Shown here: one piece after another, positions 29,176-54,575 of the stretch
How the letters are laid out: each line of letters begins with the position of its first letter
How positions within the stretch are numbered: the stretch's first letter is position 1
From: a virus
Virus record (IMG/VR): IMGVR_UViG_3300006802_000112
Location: 1 to 56,419 of that record
Reading direction: 5' to 3' (one strand)
Length of the DNA stretch: 56,419 nucleotides
Program-made: the position numbers and the translations under genes
Notes under the pieces: generated by a model
What the model was told of the DNA's origin: nothing
What the model saw: only the letters and a program-made list of their open reading frames with translations
Databases searched by the model: none

Positions 29176-32100
29176 CTATGATTGACATTCAACTTTATTT
29201 CTAGTTTCTTCTTCTGTTGGAGTAAGCATTTCAAAAGACGATTCTATAGCTGTAGCTACTTCGTTTTTATAATTTGTTATTGTGTTTGGTATGTTTTTTA
29301 TGGATGGAATTTCCATTTGAAAAGCTACTACAGGAGATATTGCATCTTCGGATGTTAATTCTGTTCTAACCCACTCATTTCCTTTATTATCAGTAATAGT
29401 TTCTATGTTTTCACCTCTTTCTTTTTTAAAGAAATCAATTGTTTTTTCATACCTTTTTAGTATACCTTGATAATCTTCGTCTATATCTTCTATACTAAAT
29501 TCATCGATATCTGCTATTTCTTCATACTGATCAGGTTGTTGTAATGTTTCAGGGTATACATTATATTCTGTAGTATATACAGTGTAATCATCCTCATATA
29601 ATACGTTAATACCTTGATTTTCTAAAGTTGTGGATATACCTTCAGACCATATGAAATCAAAATGATATTCTCTTATAGCATCATATATTTTATCTTTATC
29701 TAGTCTATATGTTTCTGTTTCTTCATCTATTAATTCGGCTATATCTTCCAATTCTGGGAGTAAATAATCGTAGTAGGAAGATTCTTTAAATTCATCCCAA
29801 GATTCTTTTGTAAATAAGTCCTTATCTTTTAACTCAGAATAAATTTCGCTAGAATCATTGTCAGCGTAAAAATCGGCTTCTTGGTTAACAAAATCATCTA
29901 TATTAAATTGATTAATTTTATCAGTAGGAATTGCTTCAAAATCAGTAGAGTTAGCATTAAAAACGGTGTGGTCTTCTCCTAGGTATTTTATAATATCACC
30001 ATTTTCTAATTCATCGGTATTCCTACTGCTCACTATGTCATAAGGTTGTAAATTAAATTCATCAGCTGACATATAGCCTTCAATTAACGCTAATGTTCTA
30101 GGTGTTGGTATTGCTAGTGTTTCCATACCTAATTCTGCGTTTCTTTTAATTTCCTCTCTTAATAAACGCTCTGTATAATTTTTACGGTGAGCAATGAATT
30201 GTTTATCTCTTAAACTTGCGTTGTCAAGTAGGCTATTTTTTAAGTTTGGTAAATCTTTTTTAGCGTTGAAGTATTTAGTGTATAATTGTTTATCTGGCTT
30301 AATTCCAGGTAAAATATTTTTTTCATAGTAGGAAACAGCATCTTCTAGTGAGGTAAATATTTCTCTACCTAATCTATACTCGTATGATTTTTTTTGCTTA
30401 TTAAATTTCTCTGTTATAAAGCTATAGGGCATTAGATAACCTTTGCCTTCTAGTTGATAATCTTGCACTTCTACTGGTTCTATTTTTTCACCTAAAGCTA
30501 AAGATACTAATGATTTAGCATAGCCCTCTTGTTCTTTTAATCTTCTTTGTACTTTTTCTTTTTGTTTTTCTATAGCATCAAAGCCTCTATTTTCTTTTTT
30601 TGCTTCCTCTATTGCCTTATTTAGGTTTTTTATAGCCTCTTTGTCCTCATTAATTGATTTAAATGCCTCTGATATGTCATTATAAAGGTCTTTAACTATA
30701 TACTCCTCACTACCCTCAAAGCTAGAATCAATATCATTGATTAACTTTTCTGTCTCTTTTATTTTTTTATAAATAGGCTTTTGTTTAGAATTTAAGTCCT
30801 TAGGATTATTTTCATAGTTAGTTAGAACCATGTCTACAGCCTTAGCTTTTTGATAAGAGTCCGATTGCATTTCAGCAACATAAACATCTTTTGTTCCAGC
30901 TTCTCTCCAAACTCTAGTGTGACCAAACTGCCCACTATTTATCTTTCTAGTTTTATTGTAGTTTTCAATCCAATTATTCGTCATCTCTAAAGACGGTGAC
31001 ATAAAGTATGCTTCCTCTTCTATATTCTCTGGTGTTATTCTAGAGTTTCTATCTACAACGTAGTTTATGCCAGATTCTCTATTTGTTGTAACTCTAAATT
31101 CTATACCATCTAAATTCTTTTCAAAATCTCTCTTAAAGTGCCCGTCTATTTGATGATCGAGTTTTGAGTTATAAATATTTGTACTAGAAAATCCAACATC
31201 CACTCCTACATTGTCTGAACCATAATCTGAATAGGTTGTACTTTCTATGACATCTAGTGGCATTATTCTAGCGTTCACTTCTCCTCTAAATTCATCAAAA
31301 GGTATTTGTGTTTTTCCTCTAAAGCCTTCTAAATTTAAGACCTCTCTAATTATTGCTTTTTCAATTGCTTTTGTTGTAGGTTGTTTTAAAATTTGATTAA
31401 TTGTTTGAATATTAACCATTTTACCTTTTTTCTTAGCAAACATCTCATCTAATAATGGTTGTATTGTGTATTCAGATGTTTGGAATTTAGTGCCACTTAA
31501 CATGTCAATAGCGACAGCTTCAGCAAATTGTTCTAGGGTTATATTCTCTAGCTCTTCTGCTGTGTATTGTGTGATTCCTAAAGCGTTTTTAATTGAGTTC
31601 CATAAATCAGTCAGCCATTCTCTAATAGCAGATTTTCTTTTTTTGTTGACTACTAATTCTCCCTTATCACCAATTAGTTGTGTTAAGGCTTCTTCGTATA
31701 ATCTTTCACCTTCTAAATTTGGTTGAGATTCTTTTACTTTATCTATATACTCTTGACCCTGTTCTTGTACTAACTGTATTCCTTTTCTATAAAGGTTTGG
31801 TCTATTTTCTTTGGCCCAAAAATTAAATAGGTGGCCAAACTCATGTATTTGTGTATTTAGTATTCTTGGGTTGTCTGTATTTAAATATACATCTCCATTG
31901 TATACAAATCCATTAGGGGTAATAGTTAAAGATTCGGTAGATAATGATAAATTTATTGGGTCATACACAATACCAAAGGAATCCATAACTTCTTCCTCTA
32001 GCCTATCTCCTATAAACTTATCTAAAATTGATACTGTATTTGGATCAAAAACTAGATACTGTGTAGTGGTTCCTATAGGGTAATTTTTTTCATATGTATT

Positions 32101-43317: not shown

Positions 43318-46008
43318 TTAAATTAGATTGTTGGCTACATATGTAAGGTAATCCCTTCTTTCTTCTATATCCATAGTATCTGTTGGGTCAAACTGAATCG
43401 TTTGTCCAAAGAAATCTGGATTAAACTGTGGGAATATACTAGCCATTAGATTCATTTTTCTATTGTAATCGTATGCAGCTAACGCTTGTTTGTTATTGTA
43501 CAACTCCCAATCCCTCATATCTTTATCTGTTTTATCTAATGCTGTAAAAGTTCTTGCCTCATATCCTAAAGCATTTTGTGCTCTTAACATACTTTCTTTA
43601 TCCCTTTGACCTGCATTGAATAAATCAGTTTGAGCTTGATTTTGCATATTCATTACATTGGTATCTCTGATTGCTTTTGCTTCAGCTCCCATAGCTGTGC
43701 CAGTTAATTGAGATAATGCAGATGCTCTTTGCACAGGATTTAAATCAGATAATTGATCTGTTGAGAAGCTTCTAGCATCAGATATAGCCTGTAATTGCTG
43801 TTCAGGGCTTAATTTTATTGGGTCTAATCTAGATAATCTAACCTCTGGAAATAATGTAGCTTGCATTCCCATTGGAGGTCTAACGTATTGATATGGATAC
43901 GCAAACATTCTAGGGAAATATGGCTTTGGAACATTTATATCTATCTCTTCTTCCTCTAGTGGTACTATTGTTTCATAGTCGGAGATAAAGAAGTCTGCAT
44001 CACCTAAATCACCTAATGTATCAAATCTAGCTTTTGTATCATCTGATAAAGAATTGTAAAATTCTTCGTCTGCTTTTACTTGCTTAGCTGTTGTATACCC
44101 TTTCTTCTTTGATTTTTCTATTTCTTCAGGTGTAAGTAAGTCTATATTTGGTAAATACCTTCCAGATGTAAATTCTCCTAGCTTACCTTCTACTTGTCTT
44201 ACTCTTTGTTGTTCTGTTAACTCTTCTAATGTGTCAGGTACAAATGTTTCTTCTTCTTTATATTTTGTAGCAGCATCTATTTCATCTTGACTTACGTTTA
44301 TTCTTCCACTTAGTATTAAATCAGCGGCGGCTCTCATGCGTGAGTCCATCCTTTTTTGTAAGGTTTTTACTTTTGGATTTACTGTATTTAATTTTATATC
44401 TTTATTAACTAGTTTTAATCTCCCCCCTTCAACTTTTACATCACTGCCAAAAACATCTAATACAATGTCTGGAAATTGTTTATACAATGCATTTAAAGCA
44501 TCTTCTGCATTTGCAATGTCTCCATATCCACCACCTTCTCCAGCACGTTTTTGTCCTCTAACATTTTCTTTATATAAAGGATTTTGTTCGTACTCTATAT
44601 CATAATCTATAGAGTCTCCATCTTGATATTTTTTTATATATCCACCATCTCTTTTTACTGATCTAAAAGATTCTAAGTATTCTTTAGGAGTTTTATTTTT
44701 TGATTCTACATTTTTCCCATATAGATTTGGGAATACTTCTTCTAGGGATTTATTATCTCTTACTACGTTACCAAAATATTTTCTAGTTCCTTGCCTTCCT
44801 AAAAAGTTTACAAGGGCTACAATGTCTTCATTTGAATAACCTGATAAGTCTACTTGATTTTGGTATTCATTAATTATATCTTTAGCATCTTGTTTTAATG
44901 AGTTTCCTCCAATACCAGTGTTATATCTATAATTAAATACTTTGTTTTGAGCCTCTTTATCTTTTGCGAATTGGTCTCTTGTTCCAGAATAAATATCGCT
45001 AGTTAACTCGTTATAAAGCTGACCAAATAAACCTGTGGCAGAGGAATTTGGATTTTTCATCAAAACACCATCAGCACTTTCAACATGTGAAATACCTTTT
45101 TTAAGGTAGTCCATATCAATAGTGAAATCATCTTTTTGTGGGACATTTATTACCTGGCCTACTTTTATTTTTTCTATGTTAATACCTGGATTAGCATTTG
45201 TTAGTTCATCGAACTTTAAACCATATTTGTTTGCTATTCCATAGAATGTTTCTCCTGATGATATAGTATGCTTACCAGCTTCTTGATATTTTGGTATTTG
45301 TCCTCCGTATTCATATTTTTTACCTGAGAGTGCTCTCATGCCTTCTTCAACGGTCATACCATTTTTTCTACAAATATCCTCGAACTTACTTCTTTTTAGT
45401 CCTCCATATTTGTACTCTCCATCTTCATTTTTTTCTTTTAAAGATTTTGTATCTTCTTGTTCATTGTAAAGAAGATCAAACATTTCTTTTTTATATTCTT
45501 CTAGCTCTTGTTTTTTTGTTTCTATATCGAATATCTTCTTTGACAGGAATTCTCTATTTACTGCTAGTGTGTTTCTATCTATTGATTTTTTATTAAGGAG
45601 CTTATTAAGTGCTTCAAAAGCTTCTTCTTGCTCTTGAACTACTTTCTCATAACCAATTTTTTTTAAGAAATTATCTAATACTTTTGAATATGTGTCTTTT
45701 TTTGAGACCTTCATATCAAAATTAGTTTCTAATTCTTTTCTTGTTTCTGGGGCTACTGTTAAATAATTAGATAACACTCTTGTTCCTTCAGGTAAATTCA
45801 TCATCATTCCACCATTAGAGTGTGTTTCTCCAATAGCTTTTTGAGTTGTTCCATCAGGATACATTATATACTCACCCTTCTCAATTTCAGCATTTGGTTC
45901 TACGCCAGTTTTTGGAGAAAGCTCCTTAGTGTAAGCATCGGTCATTAACTTTGGTAAGTCTTCTTGTCCTGCTCTTTCTATTTTATCTATATCGAACTCC
46001 TTAGCCAT
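43318..46008 (-). CDS. Virion protein with LysM and lytic-transglycosylase-like domains, 896 aa
   Basis: Residues about 28-90 hold a block seen in many Bacteroidota phage proteins: 'VEPNAEIEKGEYIMYPDG', then 'THSNGGMMMNLPEGTRVLSN'. A LysM domain follows at about 247-292: 'HTISSGETFYGIANKYGL' and 'KIKVGQVINVP', binding peptidoglycan. Next comes a lysozyme/SLT-like domain at about 300-430, with 'ISHVESADG' (catalytic Glu candidate) and 'SSATGLFGQ'. The motifs 'EYGGQIPKYQEAG' (about 232) and 'RDGGYIKKYQDG' (about 452) flank these two domains. The C-terminus (about 700-896) is Gln/Ala-rich helix. The probable role is local digestion of the cell wall when DNA enters, with structural duties. Confidence 0.7.
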   Translation of the reverse strand: MAKEFDIDKIERAGQEDLPKLMTDAYTKELSPKTGVEPNAEIEKGEYIMYPDGTTQKAIGETHSNGGMMMNLPEGTRVLSNYLTVAPETRKELETNFDMKVSKKDTYSKVLDNFLKKIGYEKVVQEQEEAFEALNKLLNKKSIDRNTLAVNREFLSKKIFDIETKKQELEEYKKEMFDLLYNEQEDTKSLKEKNEDGEYKYGGLKRSKFEDICRKNGMTVEEGMRALSGKKYEYGGQIPKYQEAGKHTISSGETFYGIANKYGLKFDELTNANPGINIEKIKVGQVINVPQKDDFTIDMDYLKKGISHVESADGVLMKNPNSSATGLFGQLYNELTSDIYSGTRDQFAKDKEAQNKVFNYRYNTGIGGNSLKQDAKDIINEYQNQVDLSGYSNEDIVALVNFLGRQGTRKYFGNVVRDNKSLEEVFPNLYGKNVESKNKTPKEYLESFRSVKRDGGYIKKYQDGDSIDYDIEYEQNPLYKENVRGQKRAGEGGGYGDIANAEDALNALYKQFPDIVLDVFGSDVKVEGGRLKLVNKDIKLNTVNPKVKTLQKRMDSRMRAAADLILSGRINVSQDEIDAATKYKEEETFVPDTLEELTEQQRVRQVEGKLGEFTSGRYLPNIDLLTPEEIEKSKKKGYTTAKQVKADEEFYNSLSDDTKARFDTLGDLGDADFFISDYETIVPLEEEEIDINVPKPYFPRMFAYPYQYVRPPMGMQATLFPEVRLSRLDPIKLSPEQQLQAISDARSFSTDQLSDLNPVQRASALSQLTGTAMGAEAKAIRDTNVMNMQNQAQTDLFNAGQRDKESMLRAQNALGYEARTFTALDKTDKDMRDWELYNNKQALAAYDYNRKMNLMASIFPQFNPDFFGQTIQFDPTDTMDIEERRDYLTYVANNLI

Positions 46009-46009
46009 A

Positions 46010-48631
46010 TTATTTTAAATATAGTTTTCCGTTTTCTACTCTATCTATTGTTCCACTATACTTCTTACCACCATAATTAAAAGAAATCTTTTCACCTGGT
46101 CCTTTACCCATAAATGTTTCTCCTCCCATTTTTAAATTAGTTAATGGTTCAACACTTCTTGTAAACATAAATGTATCTTCTCCTTTTGGTTTTAATACAT
46201 TATAGGTTAAACGTGGTTTCGCTATAGATGTTATTTCTCCAGAAGGATTCCTAGATATTGCATAACTAGGTATAGATTCTAAATCTTCTGTACTTGGTGA
46301 TTTTCCAAATTCTTGAAATCGATTATACATATTCCACCAATTTCTATTTTGTTTATAGTATGGGTCAGATGTACTGTCTACATATATTGTATCCTGTCCT
46401 TCAACACTTGATAGTGGATTTCCTTCTTTATCATATATTTTTCTAATTCCTCCATTTTCATACATGTTACCTCCCATCTTATAATTAGTATCAAATATAC
46501 TATTAAAAGCATTTCTTGCTTTTGGTAGTAGATACCCTAATCTTTGCGCATTTGCATAGCTACCAGGATAAAACATATCAGTAATTTCATGTAAAGGAGG
46601 TCTAGCATTTTTATAATCTTGATATAATGTTTCAAAAGCTTTTTTATTTTCTTCAGAATTGCCTTCATTTTTACCATATGCAGTTGCAACATTATCATAA
46701 AGATCACTAATCTCATCACTTGTTAAATAATCTTGAGCATAATCACTCCAATATTTATAACCAGTTGTAGGTACTAGATTCCAAAGACTAGCAGAATATC
46801 CATCAACTTCTGATGTATCTTCAATTATAGGACCTCGATATTTAGAATTAGGATTAGAATTACTTTTTCCAGCTTTTCCATCTTTTCCTCCTCCATTTTC
46901 ATAAAAAGAAGGTGTTTGAAATAACCCTCCATAATTCATCTGTGGAGCAGCACCTTGCATTTGTTGAATTACCATTTGAACCATTTGCATTGCTTGTTCT
47001 TCTGGTATTCCATTTTGAACCAATACTTGAACAACTTGTTCAGGAGTAGCACCTTGTTGTAATGCTTGAACAATCATTGCTAGTATTTGTTGTTGCTGTT
47101 GCATCATTGCTTGCTCTTGACTAGCTTGTTGAACCATTTCTTGATCTTCCATAGCTTGTTGTTCTTGCATCATTGATTGTTGTTCAGCTACAGCTTGATC
47201 TTGTGCCATTTGTTCTTCTATTTCTCCACCATCTTCCCAGGTTCCAAATCTTTTGTGCCAGTAAAGAGGTGAAAATGGGTCTTTAGCTTTTGCGGAATTT
47301 TTACCTCCCATTCTTTGCCAAAATCTTTTTTGTCTTTCTTTGTTTTTATGTTGGGTGAAATCATCCATCCCTCTATAACCTCCTTTGACTATTTTGTACC
47401 TATCTCCTTTTTTAGCTAATACTTCCCATTTGTGCTTAGCTCCTTCTGGTGCTCTTTTCTTTACGCCTACTTTAGAGAATCCTCTTTTTTTGTATCTTTC
47501 AGGTATTCCTCCTTTTTTACCACCTGCTTTAAATAACTCTGGGAATAAATCTTCTTTTAAATCTTCTAGCTCATCTTCCATGTCGACTGTAAAATCAGCA
47601 TTTGAATCTTTTAGTGCTCTTAGGAAGTTATATCTCTTCATTCCACCATCCTCAAAAGATACTGATTCAGTTGGTCTTCTACCTGTAAATGCTAGTGCTC
47701 TAACTTTACCAAATTTTTCATCTTCTGGTAAACTTTTATTAAGCTCTTTAATATCTCTATTCATATCCATAGCATGTTTTATTGAGCCTATAATTCCAGG
47801 GTCTCCATAACCAAATTTTTGGATATCTGAGTATTCTGGTAAATCTTGTCCTAAATAATTAACTTCTCCATATCTTCCAAATAAGTCTATTGCAGGAGAA
47901 AATTTTCTTTCGTTTTTTCTTGCTTGTCTACCACCATCTTCAAAAGCGTACCCTAATGCTGTTGCATCATCTTTATATTGAGGTTGTGACTCAAAATATT
48001 GTCTATTTAGATTTTTATAATACCAATCCATTGTATTATCTTGTCTTTTTTGCGCACCCATTCCTGCGAGTATGTTAGCAGCACCTCTTAATCCAGCTAA
48101 ACCTAGTCCAGCTAAACCCATTCCTGGTTTTCCTGATGCAAAGGACCTCCCTGCGTTATATAAAGCCGAGGGCGTTGACATGCCATAAGCATTAAAGAAT
48201 GGAGCCCCTGCTAAAAAACTATCGAAAGCTGTTTGCTGATTAGTTCCTTCTACACCTTCTTCTGTTATTTCTTCATTTACACCTTCTTCTGTTATTTCTC
48301 CATTTGAGTTTTGTAATAAACCTCTTAAGTTTCCTAAATTTAGATTAGGTAAATTTAAGTTAGGTAAATTTAGATTAGGTAAATTTAAGTTAAAAGGTTG
48401 GTCAAATTGTTTTTGTTCTTTCTTGTACTGATTTACAAAATCAGGGTCTATCGTTACTTGGTCTTGTAAATTTAAGTTAAAAAGTTGGTCAAATTGTTTT
48501 TGTTCTTTCTTGTACTGATTTACAAAATCAGGGTCTATCGTTGTTGGAGGCTCACCATAAACTATTTGGTATGCCTCTTCATAGGAATATCCAGCTTGCA
48601 TTAAAGCATTTAGCATTCTCTTTTCTTTCAT
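46010..48631 (-). CDS. Virion-type protein with Gln/Met-rich helix and GG motifs, 873 aa
   Basis: Near the N-terminus an in-frame 29-residue duplication ('IDPDFVNQYKKEQKQFDQ' twice) runs into a 'NLNLPNLNLPNLNLPNLNL' repeat. Residues about 400-450 contain 'DDFTQHKNKERQKRFWQRM' and 'DPFSPLYWHKRFGTWEDGG', a block I recall from late proteins of marine Bacteroidota phages. About 472-565 is a low-complexity Gln/Met/Ala segment, ending 'GIPEEQAMQMVQMVIQQMQG'. Many 'F-E-D-GG', 'M-GG' and 'Y-GG' punctuations divide the chain into short modules. The end, 'GKKYSGTIDRVENGKLYLK', looks like a small SH3-type beta end. No enzyme activity can be read. Confidence 0.55.
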   Translation of the reverse strand: MKEKRMLNALMQAGYSYEEAYQIVYGEPPTTIDPDFVNQYKKEQKQFDQLFNLNLQDQVTIDPDFVNQYKKEQKQFDQPFNLNLPNLNLPNLNLPNLNLGNLRGLLQNSNGEITEEGVNEEITEEGVEGTNQQTAFDSFLAGAPFFNAYGMSTPSALYNAGRSFASGKPGMGLAGLGLAGLRGAANILAGMGAQKRQDNTMDWYYKNLNRQYFESQPQYKDDATALGYAFEDGGRQARKNERKFSPAIDLFGRYGEVNYLGQDLPEYSDIQKFGYGDPGIIGSIKHAMDMNRDIKELNKSLPEDEKFGKVRALAFTGRRPTESVSFEDGGMKRYNFLRALKDSNADFTVDMEDELEDLKEDLFPELFKAGGKKGGIPERYKKRGFSKVGVKKRAPEGAKHKWEVLAKKGDRYKIVKGGYRGMDDFTQHKNKERQKRFWQRMGGKNSAKAKDPFSPLYWHKRFGTWEDGGEIEEQMAQDQAVAEQQSMMQEQQAMEDQEMVQQASQEQAMMQQQQQILAMIVQALQQGATPEQVVQVLVQNGIPEEQAMQMVQMVIQQMQGAAPQMNYGGLFQTPSFYENGGGKDGKAGKSNSNPNSKYRGPIIEDTSEVDGYSASLWNLVPTTGYKYWSDYAQDYLTSDEISDLYDNVATAYGKNEGNSEENKKAFETLYQDYKNARPPLHEITDMFYPGSYANAQRLGYLLPKARNAFNSIFDTNYKMGGNMYENGGIRKIYDKEGNPLSSVEGQDTIYVDSTSDPYYKQNRNWWNMYNRFQEFGKSPSTEDLESIPSYAISRNPSGEITSIAKPRLTYNVLKPKGEDTFMFTRSVEPLTNLKMGGETFMGKGPGEKISFNYGGKKYSGTIDRVENGKLYLK
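48339..48390 (-). repeat. Short tandem repeat, AAATTTAG/AAGTTAGG type
   Basis: An 18-base unit (with A/G changes) encodes repeating Leu-Pro-Asn-Leu-Asn-Leu in the 873-residue protein. It adjoins the 77-base repeat that follows. Confidence 0.6.
48379..48542 (-). repeat. 77-base direct repeat, 87-base period, in the 873-aa gene
   Basis: Copies at 48379-48455 and 48466-48542 are alike except for one base (AAAAGG against AAAAAG). They encode the doubled N-terminal segment with 'DPDFVNQYKKEQKQFDQ'. Confidence 0.85.
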
Positions 48632-48690
48632 AATTTGTAAAAGTAATAATTTAATTATAAATAATAAAATACATTGGTTTTTTTACTATT

Positions 48691-51606
48691 CTAAAATATT
48701 TTTGGATATCCTATTTTTTGAATTAGATTATGTGGCATTTCTCCTTTCTCAAATGTTTGTTTTGGTGTAGAATATTCTTTTAATAGTTTACCATCTTTTC
48801 TTCTTATCATTTTATAAGATTTTAGGCTACCATCATTGAAAGTTTTTGTTACTTCTCTCTCTGTGAATTTTTTCCTAGGCTCATCATCGAATGCGTATGT
48901 AATATCTTTCTCTACAGTTTTACTTGTTCCAAACATTGGTCTATATACATCTATAACTTTCTTTTTACCAAATTCTGTTGATCCTGAATCTTCCTCATAA
49001 ACTCTTCTATATCCTTTTTTAAAATTAAATTTTGGTATTGAGCCTCCATATTTGTAATCGTTTACTGAACCTCCTTCTTGAAAAGGAAGACGTTGCCTAA
49101 ACTTTGAAAAAACATTTTTAGCAGCTTCACTTTCATTAAGAAAGTATTTAAAAGCTTCAGCTTGATTATCAAAGACTTGACTTTTTCCTCCACTTAGAAT
49201 TCCAGTGTTGCCTGTTCTTAATTTATTAACTTGACTAGCATTTAAAATTCCTTCACTAGGATGATATAAAAATGGAGCTGTTTCCATTGCATTATAATCT
49301 GTCCATAAAAATTTACCTTCAGTAAATCTATCACCTGCACCTGCTCCAATTACTTCATCCAATTGTGCATTTGTCATGTCTCCTCTACCCATACTCATTA
49401 TTCTAGCTTCTTCTGGCATTCCTGCACCAAACTGCTGATTTATTTTATACTCAGGAAGTCTTTGGGTCATTATTCTAACTTTAGATGGATTTTCTAATGA
49501 GCTAAAACCATAGACGGCACCTGGTGGATTTTTAATTACCTTACCAGTTGGGTCTTTTAAGTTTTCTAAATAAAATCCTGTATCATTAGTATTTGGTGTT
49601 TTTAAAAACCATCTGCCTGTAACATCATCTGCTGTGGATGTCATGTTAACATCTGGATGTTCTATTCTATAAGTGTTTTGATATTTAGGTAAACTAAACT
49701 TTCCTTTCATTTTAGTAGTGCCAATCACGTCATCTACATACCTGACAAGACCAGGTGTATAGTTTGCTGCTCTTCTTATTGGTAAACTTTTAACAAAAGC
49801 AGGAATAGGTTCTAGATTTAATGCAGCTTTTTGTAAAGATGTTGAAAAAGGTAACATGCTTTCAGCAGCTATAGTACTAGCACTAGCTCCTGGCATAGCA
49901 GCTAAAGTTAAGCCTACATTTAATGCAGCTGATGGTGCTAAACTTAAAGCTTCAGAAGTTGATTCTTTTAATTTATCTAAAGCCGAAGTGTTAGGATTAT
50001 ATCTTCTAAATCTTCTTTGATATCTTGTTTCATCAGAGGGTGGTGAAAAAGTTGACATTAAGTCAAGAGGTAAAGCCATATAATCGGAAAGTGTCCAAGA
50101 ATCATCCATTACCTTTTTACTAAACTCTTCTTGTGCTTTTCCTTGTAATCTTGTAGGCATTGCTTGCATAGAAGGCTGTCCTTTCATTTCATTTTCTATA
50201 ATCATCTGTGCATTCTGTACAGCTTGATTATGAGATACTCCTGTTTCTTCTTTTATAGCTTTTGTTAAATCTCCTACTCTTTTTATGTGTTCTCTATCCT
50301 TTGTTATTTGTTCTTCAGTAGGTCTAAAGATATTTTCTACTGCAGTTGATTCTGAAACTTCTGGGTCTAATGTGTTTTGATAATATCCAATTGGCTTAGG
50401 TTTTTGTATATTATATTTTTGATTACCTTTTTGATATTTTGGTATAGAACCTCCTTTTTGGAAGTTTACTTTGATACCTCCTTTTTGAAATTCAAAAGTA
50501 TCTGTTTTGCCAACATCTATAAATTTTCTTTTTACCCAAGTTCCATTTGGAAGCTGTTCCCAAAAATATTTAGGTACTTGTTTTGTTCGTTCTTGAGGTT
50601 CAGAATCTTTTGTTGATTTATTTGTTAACTGCGGTTGTATATTTGTTAGCTGTGTTTGTCTTTTTATAGGTAAGCTATCTATAGGTAAGCTATCTATATT
50701 TTCTGTTTTAAAAGTTTTAGTTTCAGGATTATAGTTTTCTACAATCCATTCATTTAAAGCTTTGTTTTGCTCGGCAGTTCCTTTATAGTTTTCAATTCCT
50801 GCTTGTTCTGCTACTTTTTTTCTATTTGAAAAAGAAGAGTCTAAACCTAGTTTTCTAAATCTAACATCTACTGAAATATTTGGATCTGTTGTTCCTGTAG
50901 AATTATCTTCAGGGTAGGGATTAGTAAATACATATCCTTCTTTTTCTACCTTACGTCTAAATTCTTTTTCTTTTTTAGTAAGCATATTCCATGGTTTTAC
51001 CATTACTGGATCATAATAAGGAACCATACTTAAGTCATATATATCATTATGTGAATAATGTAATGCTCCTTGTGGTAATATATATGGACTATATAATATA
51101 GGAGGAGCATCTGGATTAGTTCTATGATCATGGGCCGATAACTTAGTAGGTTTCAAATTTGGATCATATATATAATCATAACCCCCTAAAGTACCATTAC
51201 TTTCATCAAGTCCTAAAAAATCTGATGTGCTATATAAAGTATTTGATATTTTTTTTATTCTATCTAATAAATGATCTTTTGTTAACTCTGGAAATACTTC
51301 TGGATCCTCTAACATATAGTTCTCAATATACTCTCTTTCATATCGTGTGTGATCTGCTGCATATTTTAAGTTTTCTTCTGTAAACGGACTTTCAGATTGT
51401 AGATATGTTTGTAATAGTTTGTAATCTTTTTGATTTCTATAATATGCATCTTTTGCTAATGCATTATTATAAAGTGCTAAACTATCAGCATATGTAGGTG
51501 TACCAGTTTGATATTTTGGTATTGAGCCTCCTTTTTTGAAGTTTACTTTTATTAAATTACTTTTTTTTGTTTGAGGTAAAGATTTTATTTTATAAGTCTT
51601 TTTCAT
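48691..51606 (-). CDS. Virion-type protein with GG-x-IPKYQ modules, 971 aa
   Basis: The N-terminus is basic and contains 'FKKGGSIPKYQTG' (about residue 25-37). The same motif returns as 'FQKGGSIPKYQKG' (about 380-392) and 'YGGSIPKFNFKKG' (about 850-862), so it brackets three modules. The middle has an Ala/Pro-rich, weakly hydrophobic stretch ('ALNVGLTLAAMPGASASTIA', about 555-575). About 650-830 contains 'YRIEHPDVNMTSTADDVTGR-WF' and 'FGAGMPEEARIMSMGRGD', which could be an ADP-ribosyltransferase-like fold; that is weak. It lies 59 bases upstream of the 46010-48631 gene. Function unknown; probably packaged. Confidence 0.55.
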   Translation of the reverse strand: MKKTYKIKSLPQTKKSNLIKVNFKKGGSIPKYQTGTPTYADSLALYNNALAKDAYYRNQKDYKLLQTYLQSESPFTEENLKYAADHTRYEREYIENYMLEDPEVFPELTKDHLLDRIKKISNTLYSTSDFLGLDESNGTLGGYDYIYDPNLKPTKLSAHDHRTNPDAPPILYSPYILPQGALHYSHNDIYDLSMVPYYDPVMVKPWNMLTKKEKEFRRKVEKEGYVFTNPYPEDNSTGTTDPNISVDVRFRKLGLDSSFSNRKKVAEQAGIENYKGTAEQNKALNEWIVENYNPETKTFKTENIDSLPIDSLPIKRQTQLTNIQPQLTNKSTKDSEPQERTKQVPKYFWEQLPNGTWVKRKFIDVGKTDTFEFQKGGIKVNFQKGGSIPKYQKGNQKYNIQKPKPIGYYQNTLDPEVSESTAVENIFRPTEEQITKDREHIKRVGDLTKAIKEETGVSHNQAVQNAQMIIENEMKGQPSMQAMPTRLQGKAQEEFSKKVMDDSWTLSDYMALPLDLMSTFSPPSDETRYQRRFRRYNPNTSALDKLKESTSEALSLAPSAALNVGLTLAAMPGASASTIAAESMLPFSTSLQKAALNLEPIPAFVKSLPIRRAANYTPGLVRYVDDVIGTTKMKGKFSLPKYQNTYRIEHPDVNMTSTADDVTGRWFLKTPNTNDTGFYLENLKDPTGKVIKNPPGAVYGFSSLENPSKVRIMTQRLPEYKINQQFGAGMPEEARIMSMGRGDMTNAQLDEVIGAGAGDRFTEGKFLWTDYNAMETAPFLYHPSEGILNASQVNKLRTGNTGILSGGKSQVFDNQAEAFKYFLNESEAAKNVFSKFRQRLPFQEGGSVNDYKYGGSIPKFNFKKGYRRVYEEDSGSTEFGKKKVIDVYRPMFGTSKTVEKDITYAFDDEPRKKFTEREVTKTFNDGSLKSYKMIRRKDGKLLKEYSTPKQTFEKGEMPHNLIQKIGYPKIF

Positions 51607-51608
51607 AA

Positions 51609-54575
51609 TTATTCAAATTTGTAACCTAATTTTTTTAATCTAAGATAGGTATCTTTATCTACCTCATCTCCTATTTTGTAATCGTTTATAGAACCCCCTT
51701 CTTTCATGTCATAGTCTAACAATGACTTAGCTATATCGAATGCTGATTTATTATATCTAGTAATTTTTCTAGCCTCTTTTGGATTTGTTATAAATTCATT
51801 ACCAGTAATATCTTTGATTATCATATTTTCTAAAATATCTGTATCTCCCATTTTATCTTTGCCCCAATTTGCTTTTTGATAAGCAACTCTATCTAAGACT
51901 TCTTGAGAAGGAATATACTCTTTATTACCATAACCACGATTTAAAATGTTTTCAGTTCTAGTTGCAAGTCTAATATTTTTTAAACCTTCTCTAGCTCTAT
52001 TAAAAATATCTTTATATTCATCAGTACCTTTCTCTAAAAAAGTATATTCTTCAGAATCATCATCATATTTTGTGATAATTGGTTTTTTGAATAAATAAGG
52101 CTTTTGAATCCTATATCCTATAAATGGATTTTCAGGACTTTCTACATCAGTGAAGTTAAATTGTGGAAGGTTATGAACCTTAATAGCTTCTGACTTTGGA
52201 TCTGTAATAAAATCCCAATGTTCTTTTTTTGAACCCCCTCCTTGAAAGTTAAATCTTAAATTAAAATTAGAAGATATTCCTGAAGGAACTCTTGTAAAAT
52301 TTCCTGATTGGTCAGGATAACCAAATATTTGTTTATTTGCTCCAGCTCCTATAGAAAATTTACCAAGATTTTTTTGAAGATTTATAAAATAGTCTCCTTT
52401 AAAATATGGATTAGTTTTTATATCATATGGTAGGTATCCACCTATTGTACCTTCTAGTCCAAGTTCATTGCTACCTAAAGTGGCTAATCCAAAAAATCCT
52501 TCTGGGGATGGCTCTGCGAATGCATATTTATATATATTTGATGGTTTATAATTATTTTCTGGTAATCCTAAATTAATAGATGGAACTTCTGTGTTTAATA
52601 ATTTTTCTTTTAAATCAAGATATTTTTCTAAATCTGTTGTTGGTATTTTTTTTGATTTACTATTTTGATTATTTAAATAATTAAAACTATCCCCCATTTG
52701 AAATTTAGGTATTAAGCCCCCTTCTTTTTTATATCTCCAATCTGTATATTTTAAATCTATTCCTAGAGGATTTTTAGTGCCTTGTTCAATAGATTTTCTT
52801 AAAGATTCTAATTCTTGCGGATTATTTTTAATAAGGTTTAAAAGCTCTACATTTTTTTCAGTAATTGGTAAATAATTCCTTGCTTTAGCGGGGTTATAAA
52901 ATTGTGGATTTAATATTGGTTCAACGTTTCCTCTATAAAATGCATCAAAATATCTTAATTGCCCTGATGGGCTATGCCCTATTCCTCCGCTAGTTATACC
53001 TGAGCCTAATTCTTTTAAAGCTTGATTTATAGCTTCTTTTGATTCAGCACCAACACCTTTGTATAAACCAATTTCTGCATCTTTTAGGTTCATGTATGGA
53101 TAATCATATTTTGAACCAAATAAAGGTGTCTCAGAATATCCTCCACCAGATGTTGTGTAACCTTGTGTACCTTTTGAAGGGGGACTAAATCCTATATAAC
53201 CAGTATTTTTGCCATCTACATATATTTGTATAGATTTAGGATCATGTGGGCTTGGTTTTAATTCTATATTTAAATTTGGATTTTTCTTTATTCCTAATCC
53301 TTTACCACTTAATTTTTTGTTAGCATTTTGTACAGCTTTTTTAAGTAACTCTATAGGGTTTTCTGTTGTTACTACTTTTGGCTTATTTACAAATGATTCC
53401 CAACTTGGACCAGCTGTATAAATTTGTGCACTTTCCATTGCTAATCTTTCTGCTGGTGTTACAGGTTTAAGCATTTGTTTTACACCTCTAACAATTGATG
53501 GTCCAACAGCTGGTGCAACCATAGCTGCATCTAATAAACTATGCAATCCTAAGTTATTACTAAAAAAATCTTTAGTTAAATGTGTTGCACCTTGCATTGC
53601 TCCAATAGCCATACCTGGTGGAGTAAAATATGCGGCAGTTGTAAATGCTGGGTTATTTATAGTTTTTTCAACACCCATTTTAATAAACTCATCTCTTTCT
53701 TTTTGAGTAGGTTTGTAGGATGGGTCTTCCCACCATTTTTTATCTTGATTTTTTAAAGCTTTTAAATGTGCTTGAACTACTTTTTTATCTTCTTTATATA
53801 ATTGTTGTTCTTCAGTTGGTTTAGTTTTTTGGTTAGTATTTAATTTATGTAAACTTTGTGTATATGGATTGTAACCCCAATTACCAGAATACACACGTTT
53901 TCTAATCAGGTCATCATATGTTTGATTGTCAGAATATCTTGCTCTAGAGTCAAACCAATTAGAATTATCTTTTAGTGTAAGTATTTTGTTTGGTGTCTCT
54001 CCAGCAGTTTGATATTTTGGTATTGAGCCTCCTTTTTGATAATCTGTTTTCCAAGAGCCCATTCCAAATGCTAGTGCAGCTTCTTTGTTTTTTCCAAAGT
54101 TATATACTTCACCTCTTCTTTCTGCTTCTTTATAAATTTTCATCCAATCTTCTTCATTAGACATATCTACCCATGATTTATCTTCGTTTTGAAATAAGCT
54201 AGGGAATGATACCCAATTACCATTAGGTAATACTTCTGCTCTCATTAAATGAGAAGATACTGTTTCATCTAGATTTTGTCTTACACCCATTCTTTTTTTT
54301 GGCGAGTATTGTCCCCCAAGCTGGTGATTGTCTAGTGGTTTTTCTATAACATACTTAACATTATCTGAGAATTTATAGTTTTTGCCAGGCATCATTTTTT
54401 TGTACTCTAAAATTTTGCCTATTCCAATACCTAATATAGGACCTTTTTTCAATGGTGTTCCGTCATCTTCTTTCATTGTTATTTTGTTAGATGGGATAAC
54501 ATTAAATGGTCTATTTACATGTGGGCTATTCTTTTTATAGCCTTTTTTTGATATGTTAAGTATTTTATTTATCAT
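51609..54575 (-). CDS. Virion-type protein with GG-x-IPKYQ modules, 988 aa
   Basis: Residues about 95-180 hold a block typical of large Bacteroidota phage proteins: 'SSHLMRAEVLPNGNWVSFPS' and 'ERRGEVYNFGKNKEAALAFG', ending at 'GSWKTDYQKGGSIPKYQTAG'. The motif returns as 'KKEGGLIPKFQMG' (about 617) and 'MKEGGSINDYKIG' (about 960). About 310-365 is weakly hydrophobic ('TPPGMAIGAMQGATHLTKDF'). About 500-560 has 'GLYKGVGAESKEAINQALKE' and 'GGIGHSPSGQLRYFDAF', reminiscent of an acetyltransferase-like polyvalent module, though this is uncertain. The end matches the motif-bearing ends of its neighbours, suggesting modular descent. Confidence 0.55.
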   Translation of the reverse strand: MINKILNISKKGYKKNSPHVNRPFNVIPSNKITMKEDDGTPLKKGPILGIGIGKILEYKKMMPGKNYKFSDNVKYVIEKPLDNHQLGGQYSPKKRMGVRQNLDETVSSHLMRAEVLPNGNWVSFPSLFQNEDKSWVDMSNEEDWMKIYKEAERRGEVYNFGKNKEAALAFGMGSWKTDYQKGGSIPKYQTAGETPNKILTLKDNSNWFDSRARYSDNQTYDDLIRKRVYSGNWGYNPYTQSLHKLNTNQKTKPTEEQQLYKEDKKVVQAHLKALKNQDKKWWEDPSYKPTQKERDEFIKMGVEKTINNPAFTTAAYFTPPGMAIGAMQGATHLTKDFFSNNLGLHSLLDAAMVAPAVGPSIVRGVKQMLKPVTPAERLAMESAQIYTAGPSWESFVNKPKVVTTENPIELLKKAVQNANKKLSGKGLGIKKNPNLNIELKPSPHDPKSIQIYVDGKNTGYIGFSPPSKGTQGYTTSGGGYSETPLFGSKYDYPYMNLKDAEIGLYKGVGAESKEAINQALKELGSGITSGGIGHSPSGQLRYFDAFYRGNVEPILNPQFYNPAKARNYLPITEKNVELLNLIKNNPQELESLRKSIEQGTKNPLGIDLKYTDWRYKKEGGLIPKFQMGDSFNYLNNQNSKSKKIPTTDLEKYLDLKEKLLNTEVPSINLGLPENNYKPSNIYKYAFAEPSPEGFFGLATLGSNELGLEGTIGGYLPYDIKTNPYFKGDYFINLQKNLGKFSIGAGANKQIFGYPDQSGNFTRVPSGISSNFNLRFNFQGGGSKKEHWDFITDPKSEAIKVHNLPQFNFTDVESPENPFIGYRIQKPYLFKKPIITKYDDDSEEYTFLEKGTDEYKDIFNRAREGLKNIRLATRTENILNRGYGNKEYIPSQEVLDRVAYQKANWGKDKMGDTDILENMIIKDITGNEFITNPKEARKITRYNKSAFDIAKSLLDYDMKEGGSINDYKIGDEVDKDTYLRLKKLGYKFE

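What the first reader, a model, noticed from the sequence alone, without database searches (positions are those of the whole stretch)
43318..54575. A short GG-x-IPKYQ-G motif is scattered through consecutive late proteins
Seen directly: 'KGGSIPKYQ', 'GGLIPKFQ', 'GGSINDYK', 'GGQIPKYQ' and 'GGYIKKYQ' occur three times each in the 988- and 971-residue proteins and at least twice in the 896-residue protein, with looser GG punctuations in the 873-residue protein. They sit between otherwise unrelated modules, sometimes as near-identical DNA (about 51500-51545 and 54005-54045). Inference: the motif may be a cleavage site, an assembly tag or a recombination seam that lets the phage swap modules in packaged proteins. 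I know of no described function.
Basis: partly seen in the sequence, partly recalled or inferred. Interest (0 to 1): 0.72.

Follow-up and report, generated by a model that had tools for sequence, protein, structure and literature searches.

The report
Peptide seams in phage cargo proteins
A short repeated peptide (GG-x-I/L-P-K-Y-Q) marks the joints between swappable modules in large late proteins of a crAss-like phage and its relatives, so these proteins, probably carried inside the virion, seem to be built and re-built like beads on a string.

Summary
The motif is real. Nine copies of GGx[ILV][PKN][KD][YF][QKN] lie in three of four consecutive late proteins and none in the other ORFs (0.0015 expected). 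The window is a fragment of a crAss-like phage. The motif proteins sit just upstream of homologues of crassvirus virion RNA-polymerase-associated proteins; the 896-aa protein is homologous to virion proteins of Cellulophaga phages phi4:1/phi17:2. The peptide recurs in the same gene slot of many uncultured relatives, and gut crassvirus cargo protein C1 (gp45) shows a looser form ([FY]xxGGx[LI]). Ends of shared homology blocks fall on the motif about five times more often than expected; other glycines and dipeptides show no excess. In two related phages a 442-aa stretch is present or absent exactly between motif copies, and the copy left in the shorter protein is a hybrid of the two flanking copies. 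One module lies in different proteins of two phages, with motif flanks. Cleavage or tag roles are neither shown nor excluded. The conserved joint is new here; modular injected phage proteins are known. Structure predictions were too poor to help.

The parts
54009..54032 (-). motif GGSIPKYQ in the 988-aa protein
52698..52721 (-). motif GGLIPKFQ in the 988-aa protein
51675..51698 (-). motif variant GGSINDYK in the 988-aa protein, near its C-terminus
51508..51531 (-). motif GGSIPKYQ in the 971-aa protein, near its N-terminus
50431..50454 (-). motif GGSIPKYQ in the 971-aa protein
49678..49692 (-). partial motif LPKYQ (FSLPKYQ) in the 971-aa protein
49051..49074 (-). motif variant GGSVNDYK in the 971-aa protein
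49024..49047 (-). motif variant GGSIPKFN in the 971-aa protein
45283..45306 (-). motif GGQIPKYQ in the 896-aa protein; homology to phi17:2 gp041 ends here
44623..44646 (-). motif GGYIKKYQ in the 896-aa protein, at the far end of the LysM-containing insert
51504..51536 (-). 33-nt exact DNA match shared with 54005-54037, in a different gene
54005..54037 (-). 33-nt exact DNA match shared with 51504-51536
45301..45900 (-). conserved head of the 896-aa protein (residues 37-236), 37% identical to phi17:2 gp041; carries GxxHxxGG..LPEG..VLS
44644..45282 (-). insert bracketed by two motif copies in the 896-aa protein: LysM (45139-45270; Pfam E=2e-11 on the isolated segment) plus a region of unassigned fold
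43372..43908 (-). conserved C-terminal block of the 896-aa protein (residues 701-879), 27% identical to phi17:2 gp041
47222..47608 (-). mobile module of the 873-aa protein (contains DUF5754), 58% identical to part of an otherwise unrelated 1,897-aa phage protein (G023); ends at WEDGG
54270..54554 (-). N-terminal module of the 988-aa protein (IPSNKITMK..), homologous to the N-terminus of phi17:2 gp041 and to parts of two other phage proteins; a GG follows (HQLGG)
50584..50859 (-). segment of the 971-aa protein resembling part of phage cell-wall lytic enzymes (phrog_2307, E=1e-7), between motif copies 1 and 2
43318..46008 (-). 896-aa protein; positional equivalent of crassvirus cargo protein C1; homologue of phi4:1 gp40 / phi17:2 gp041 virion protein
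46010..48631 (-). 873-aa protein, loose GG punctuation only
48691..51606 (-). 971-aa motif protein
51609..54575 (-). 988-aa motif protein

Best explanation
GG-x-[IL]-P-K-[YF]-Q is a conserved inter-module joint (seam) in a set of large late proteins of crAss-like phages that are probably virion cargo. Each copy sits at the border of a self-contained module: cell-wall-acting, portal-side or unknown. Modules are gained, lost and moved between proteins by recombination whose crossovers fall in the motif, so the joint is restored and the reading frame kept. Physically it is most likely a short flexible linker (Gly-Gly plus a small proline/aromatic element) that lets modules travel as beads on a string through the portal and tail. 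Shown: a real motif, restriction to these proteins, position at module borders, module indels with a hybrid motif, one module in two different proteins. Inferred: flexibility, packaging of the 971-, 988- and 873-aa proteins, the recombination pathway, and selection for the peptide itself.
For: Non-chance and protein-restricted. In uncultured relatives the motif proteins lie upstream of a roughly 680-1,140-aa protein and a giant protein, the same slot as in the window. Homology-block ends within 5 aa of GGxIPKYQ-like sites: 21 vs 4.1 expected; of any GG: 157 of 441 vs 64; single G and other dipeptides no excess, W a slight one. Stricter and de-duplicated: 15 vs 3.1 and 118 vs 49.5 of 335. Of 20 distinct module insertions, 11 have GG at both insert ends and at the empty site (0.6 expected). 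G015 vs G022 orthologues (80% and 72% identical on the two sides): a 442-aa stretch present in one only, bounded by motif copies; the single motif of the shorter protein has the left flank of copy 1 (PLPELRMGG) and the right flank of copy 3 (YQD..GTVxExNPxNLTAEGEQ). A module of the G015 second protein lies in a different protein of G022, entered and left at motif elements. In the window, homology of the 896-aa protein to phi17:2 gp041 stops at the first motif, and a LysM-containing insert runs to the second. Gut crassvirus C1: a GG pair after the portal-bound domain is invariant in 11 homologues and the pair before it is present in most; the cryo-EM-ordered segments 214-245 and 425-552 (PMC10172136) lie between GG sites.
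Against: AlphaFold models of the 971- and 896-aa proteins were poor (mean pLDDT 38 and 36), so flexibility is not shown. No virion data exist for this phage. Block ends may be drawn a few residues onto a shared GG by the aligner. The near-identical allele pair L020/L025, which diverges at the motif, could be an assembly chimera: L020 holds only about 359 bp beyond the break. Most GG sites counted in gut C1 proteins are looser than GGxIPKYQ, and the strict motif is absent there.
Confidence: 0.75

Rival explanations
1. The motif is a protease site: the cargo is a polyprotein cut at the motif, before packaging or after ejection, to free individual modules, as proposed for phage polyvalent proteins with zincin-like metallopeptidases.
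For: Sites lie between modules. A zincin-like HExxH motif (HEFGH) is in the neighbouring 1,838-aa late protein, and HExxH is common in the giant neighbours of relatives. Processing by embedded metallopeptidases is the published proposal for polyvalent proteins (PMC5512222). Double-glycine sites are used by several known proteases (own knowledge).
Against: No cleavage data. The crAss001 work reports segments from the N-terminal half and the portal-bound domain of gp45 inside the virion and models ejection of the protein N to C (PMC10172136), so removal of modules before packaging is not indicated. The residue after GG varies between copies (S, Y, E, P, W, N), and the strict motif is lost in gut relatives. 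HExxH alone is weak evidence of a peptidase.
Confidence: 0.2
2. The motif is a repeated packaging or docking tag that binds the portal, tail barrel or capsid interior and holds cargo in place.
For: Short, repeated, specific peptide in proteins that are probably cargo. In crAss001 C1 a GG pair opens the portal-bound segment and another follows it (PMC10172136).
Against: Copy number varies widely between orthologues. The ordered portal-bound part is the domain between the GG sites, not the sites themselves. The other large window cargo candidates (1,746, 1,838 and 1,936 aa) lack the motif.
Confidence: 0.1
3. A neutral glycine-rich linker: any flexible sequence would do, and similarity among copies reflects recent duplication rather than selection for the peptide.
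For: Copies in the 971- and 988-aa genes share a 33-nt exact stretch; three of four GGS copies share the uncommon codon string GGA-GGC-TCA (P about 6e-4), so some copies are probably recent DNA duplicates.
Against: The same IPKYQ/LPKYQ peptide recurs in many different phages with varied codons (32 distinct instances; G, P and K codons vary), which duplication within one genome does not explain.
Confidence: 0.2

Closest known systems
Crassvirus cargo protein C1 (gp45 of phage crAss001; PDB 7QOG, 7QOI, 7QOJ, 7QOL, 8CKB; PMC10172136)
   Same: Same gene slot as the 896-aa protein, upstream of the gp47-type protein; a portal-side domain followed by a conserved GG; small modules bracketed by [FY]xxGGx[LI], with module number and order changing among relatives.
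   Different: Homology of the 896-aa head domain to gp45 is only suggestive (hhalign 55%, E=1.2e-4) and the C-terminal block shows none. The strict GGxIPKYQ form is absent from the reference genomes tested. The window has extra motif-bearing proteins (971, 988 aa) upstream.
Phage polyvalent proteins (Iyer et al. 2017, PMC5512222)
   Same: Large multi-module proteins, probably injected; mosaic architectures; cell-wall-acting domains.
   Different: The main text of that paper mentions neither 'linker' nor 'glycine', so no conserved inter-module peptide is described there. Few window modules match known enzymatic domains, and the four window proteins have no HExxH.
Virion structural proteins phi4:1 gp40 / phi17:2 gp041 (Cellulophaga phages)
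   Same: Homologues of the 896-aa protein over its head and C-terminal blocks (37% and 27% identity); virion protein by MS/MS annotation.
   Different: No LysM insert at the seam; looser GG motifs only (e.g. VKKFQSGGSFG); its N-terminal IPSN module sits in a separate protein (988 aa) in the window.

Membership tests
Crassvirus cargo protein C1 (gp45) | gene slot upstream of the gp47-type giant virion protein | tested here: met
   896 lies upstream of the 1,070- and 1,746-aa genes; the 1,746-aa protein matches crassvirus RNAP-subunit-annotated proteins by tblastn and phrog_32390 at E=9e-73
Crassvirus cargo protein C1 (gp45) | sequence homology to gp45 | tested here: inconclusive
   head domain hhalign probability 55%, E=1.2e-4; C-terminal block probability 0.6%
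Crassvirus cargo protein C1 (gp45) | present in the virion, bound to the portal | not testable with these tools
   only for homologues: phi4:1 gp40 is a virion protein by MS/MS annotation
Polyvalent proteins | several domains of disparate activity in one polypeptide | tested here: inconclusive
   LysM in 896, lytic-enzyme-like segment in 971, DUF5754 in 873; most modules unassigned
Polyvalent proteins | embedded zincin-like metallopeptidase (common, not universal) | tested here: not met
   no HExxH in the 896-, 873-, 971- or 988-aa proteins; HEFGH in the 1,838-aa neighbour
Polyvalent proteins | injected into the host with the DNA | not testable with these tools
   inferred from synteny with crassvirus cargo genes only

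The most novel reading that the evidence does not exclude
The motif is a dedicated dual-use joint: it parses an injected polyprotein into units that a co-injected metallopeptidase (for example the HEFGH-bearing 1,838-aa protein) cuts apart in the host, and it is also the crossover point at which new units are plugged in.
Probability: 0.15. Interest if true: 0.8.

Novelty: new variant of a known kind. Interest (0 to 1): 0.6.

Why it matters
If right, the motif gives a simple rule for dividing the large, mostly unannotated late proteins of crAss-like phages into modules, so that each can be expressed and tested on its own. It also offers a concrete account of how these proteins come to differ so much between related phages, and makes linker versus cleavage directly testable by virion proteomics.

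Tried and rejected
Single-protein searches for close relatives of the 896-, 971- and 988-aa proteins found none; relatives came through motif pattern scans instead. AlphaFold models were too poor to place the motif, and a Foldseek search with one gave no match at E<=0.001. A motif fixed at DNA level is not supported: codons vary among phages. Homology of the C-terminal block to gp45 was not supported. An ADP-ribosyltransferase reading of the 971-aa segment after LPKYQ was considered by eye and not supported by Pfam or PHROGs. A first, slower version of the block-end test timed out. No paper in the library prints the motif strings tried. Some pattern-scan hits are poly-Gly proteins or very short ORFs (L010-L013, L044, L048) and were discarded as unrelated.

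Full report
Observation. Searches confirm the strings. Under GGx[ILV][PKN][KD][YF][QKN] there are nine copies in the 988-, 971- and 896-aa proteins and none in the remaining 13,519 residues of window ORFs; shuffling gives 0.0015. The 873-aa protein has only loose GG punctuation. The near-identical DNA is a 33-nt exact match at 51504-51536 and 54005-54037. Given the window's codon use, nine identical codons for one such pair has P=0.002, and three of four GGS copies share GGA-GGC-TCA (P about 6e-4). Some copies are therefore probably recent DNA duplicates.

What the phage is. The window is a 56-kb IMG/VR virus fragment. The 1,936-aa protein matches phrog_37651 (E=2e-70) and proteins of csAssE-Sib, phi17:2 and crAss001-type phages; the 1,746-aa protein matches phrog_32390 (E=9e-73) and RNAP-subunit-annotated crassvirus proteins. 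The 896-aa protein is homologous to phi17:2 gp041 in two blocks, residues 37-236 (37%) and 701-879 (27%), and to a csAssE-Sib structural protein. In phi4:1 the corresponding gene product is a virion protein by MS/MS annotation. The motif proteins thus sit in the slot where crAss001 has cargo protein C1 (gp45), C2 and gp47 (PMC10172136). Homology of the 896-aa head to gp45 itself is only suggestive (hhalign 55%, E=1.2e-4), and the C-terminal blocks do not match.

The motif in relatives. Pattern scans of IMG/VR for GGxIPKYQ, IPKYQxGG and GGxLPKYQ returned chance hits and a coherent set of large proteins in uncultured phages. Fuller stretches of these genomes show the motif-rich genes lying upstream of a roughly 680-1,140-aa protein and a giant protein. 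In 64 instances with duplicates removed, position 4 is I or L in 60, position 5 is P in 46, position 8 is Q in 46, and a second glycine pair often follows. Codons vary between phages, so conservation is at peptide level. Gut crassvirus C1 proteins carry a looser form, and the strict DNA form is absent from the eight reference genomes tested.

Seam test. I compared 48 motif-set proteins and 15 gut C1-slot proteins all against all and asked where partial-homology blocks end. Within 5 aa of a GGxIPKYQ-like site: 21 ends against 4.1 expected; of any GG: 157 of 441 against 64; single G and other dipeptides showed no excess, W a slight one. Dropping duplicates and merging ends within 15 aa leaves 15 vs 3.1 and 118 vs 49.5 of 335. 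Of 20 distinct module insertions, 11 have GG at both ends of the insert and at the empty site (0.6 expected). The aligner can pull an end onto a shared GG by a few residues, and related proteins are not fully independent, so these numbers are somewhat generous.

Natural experiments. (1) G015 and G022 orthologues are 80% identical up to GGHLPKYQ / GGYLPKYQ, then G015 has 442 extra residues, then 72% identity resumes at LKYGGELPKY / LRMGGYLPKY. The G022 motif carries the left flank of G015 copy 1 and the right flank of copy 3, as expected from recombination between motif copies. (2) A stretch of that G015 protein, starting at its motif, recurs at 47% identity in a different protein (the C1-type one) of G022, starting at GGELPKYQ and ending at LPKKQTGG, while the C1-type protein of G015 has an uninterrupted motif there. 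(3) L020 and L025 are 99.2% identical over 6.7 kb and part exactly at MYQNGG/INQNGG; an assembly chimera cannot be excluded. (4) In the window, the LysM-containing insert of the 896-aa protein lies between its two motif copies and is absent from phi17:2.

Gut C1. In crAss001 gp45 and relatives, small modules are bracketed by [FY]xxGG, differ in number and order (DAC15 has one in tandem), and recur in otherwise different proteins. The GG pair after the portal-bound domain is invariant in 11 homologues; the pair before it is present in most. The two assigned cryo-EM-resolved segments, 214-245 and 425-552 (PMC10172136), lie between GG sites, which fits flexible joints but does not prove them.

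Mechanism. Shown: the motif is a module border, and modules come and go at it. Inferred: it is a flexible linker favouring passage of modules through the narrow portal and tail, and it is kept because recombination at it preserves frame and spacing. Cleavage remains possible: a zincin-like HEFGH lies in the neighbouring 1,838-aa protein, and processing is the published idea for polyvalent proteins (PMC5512222). A docking tag is less likely because copy number varies widely.

Limits. Both structure predictions failed to give usable models. No host, virion or cleavage data exist for this phage. The literature search covered open-licence papers only; none found describes this joint.

Noticed in passing
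31831-31845 (minus strand, 1,838-aa protein, residue 950): Zincin-like HEFGH in ILNTQIHEFGHLF; the protein matched no Pfam or PHROGs family. HExxH also occurs in the giant late proteins of several relatives and in crAss001 gp47.
   Followed up: no
45800-45900 (896-aa protein), and alignments A4/A5: GxxHxxGG..LPEG..VLS element in the 896-aa head, similar in outline to GGxHEENP..NLVEEGEV..FSNR of gut C1; possible common fold, only suggestive by hhalign.
   Followed up: partly
L023, L027, L038: The same IPKYQ-GG peptide lies next to GEF/GEYV elements in what look by eye like tape-measure proteins of other phages, so the joint may not be limited to crAss-like phages.
   Followed up: no
L144 (DAC15 C1-slot protein, residues 194-311): Two tandem copies of an IHIK..YCGG.VT module, each preceded by a GG joint, suggesting duplication of module plus joint.
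   Followed up: no
L075 (gp45 residues 263-332); L150, L151, L153: A module LSREKxYGSKKPYP..RSYPIPT recurs (up to 74% identity) in C1-slot proteins of different crassvirus families, flanked by GG in most.
   Followed up: partly
L024 472-6339 (1,957-aa protein): 28 GG sites with repeated GGEINQYEDGGK units, and a HELSH.
   Followed up: no
L025 (2,104-aa ORF), C-terminal part: Segment GEGSEFTVYKDTKGNVFKIG..ISDIDPDNVII looks by eye like a protein kinase; not tested.
   Followed up: no
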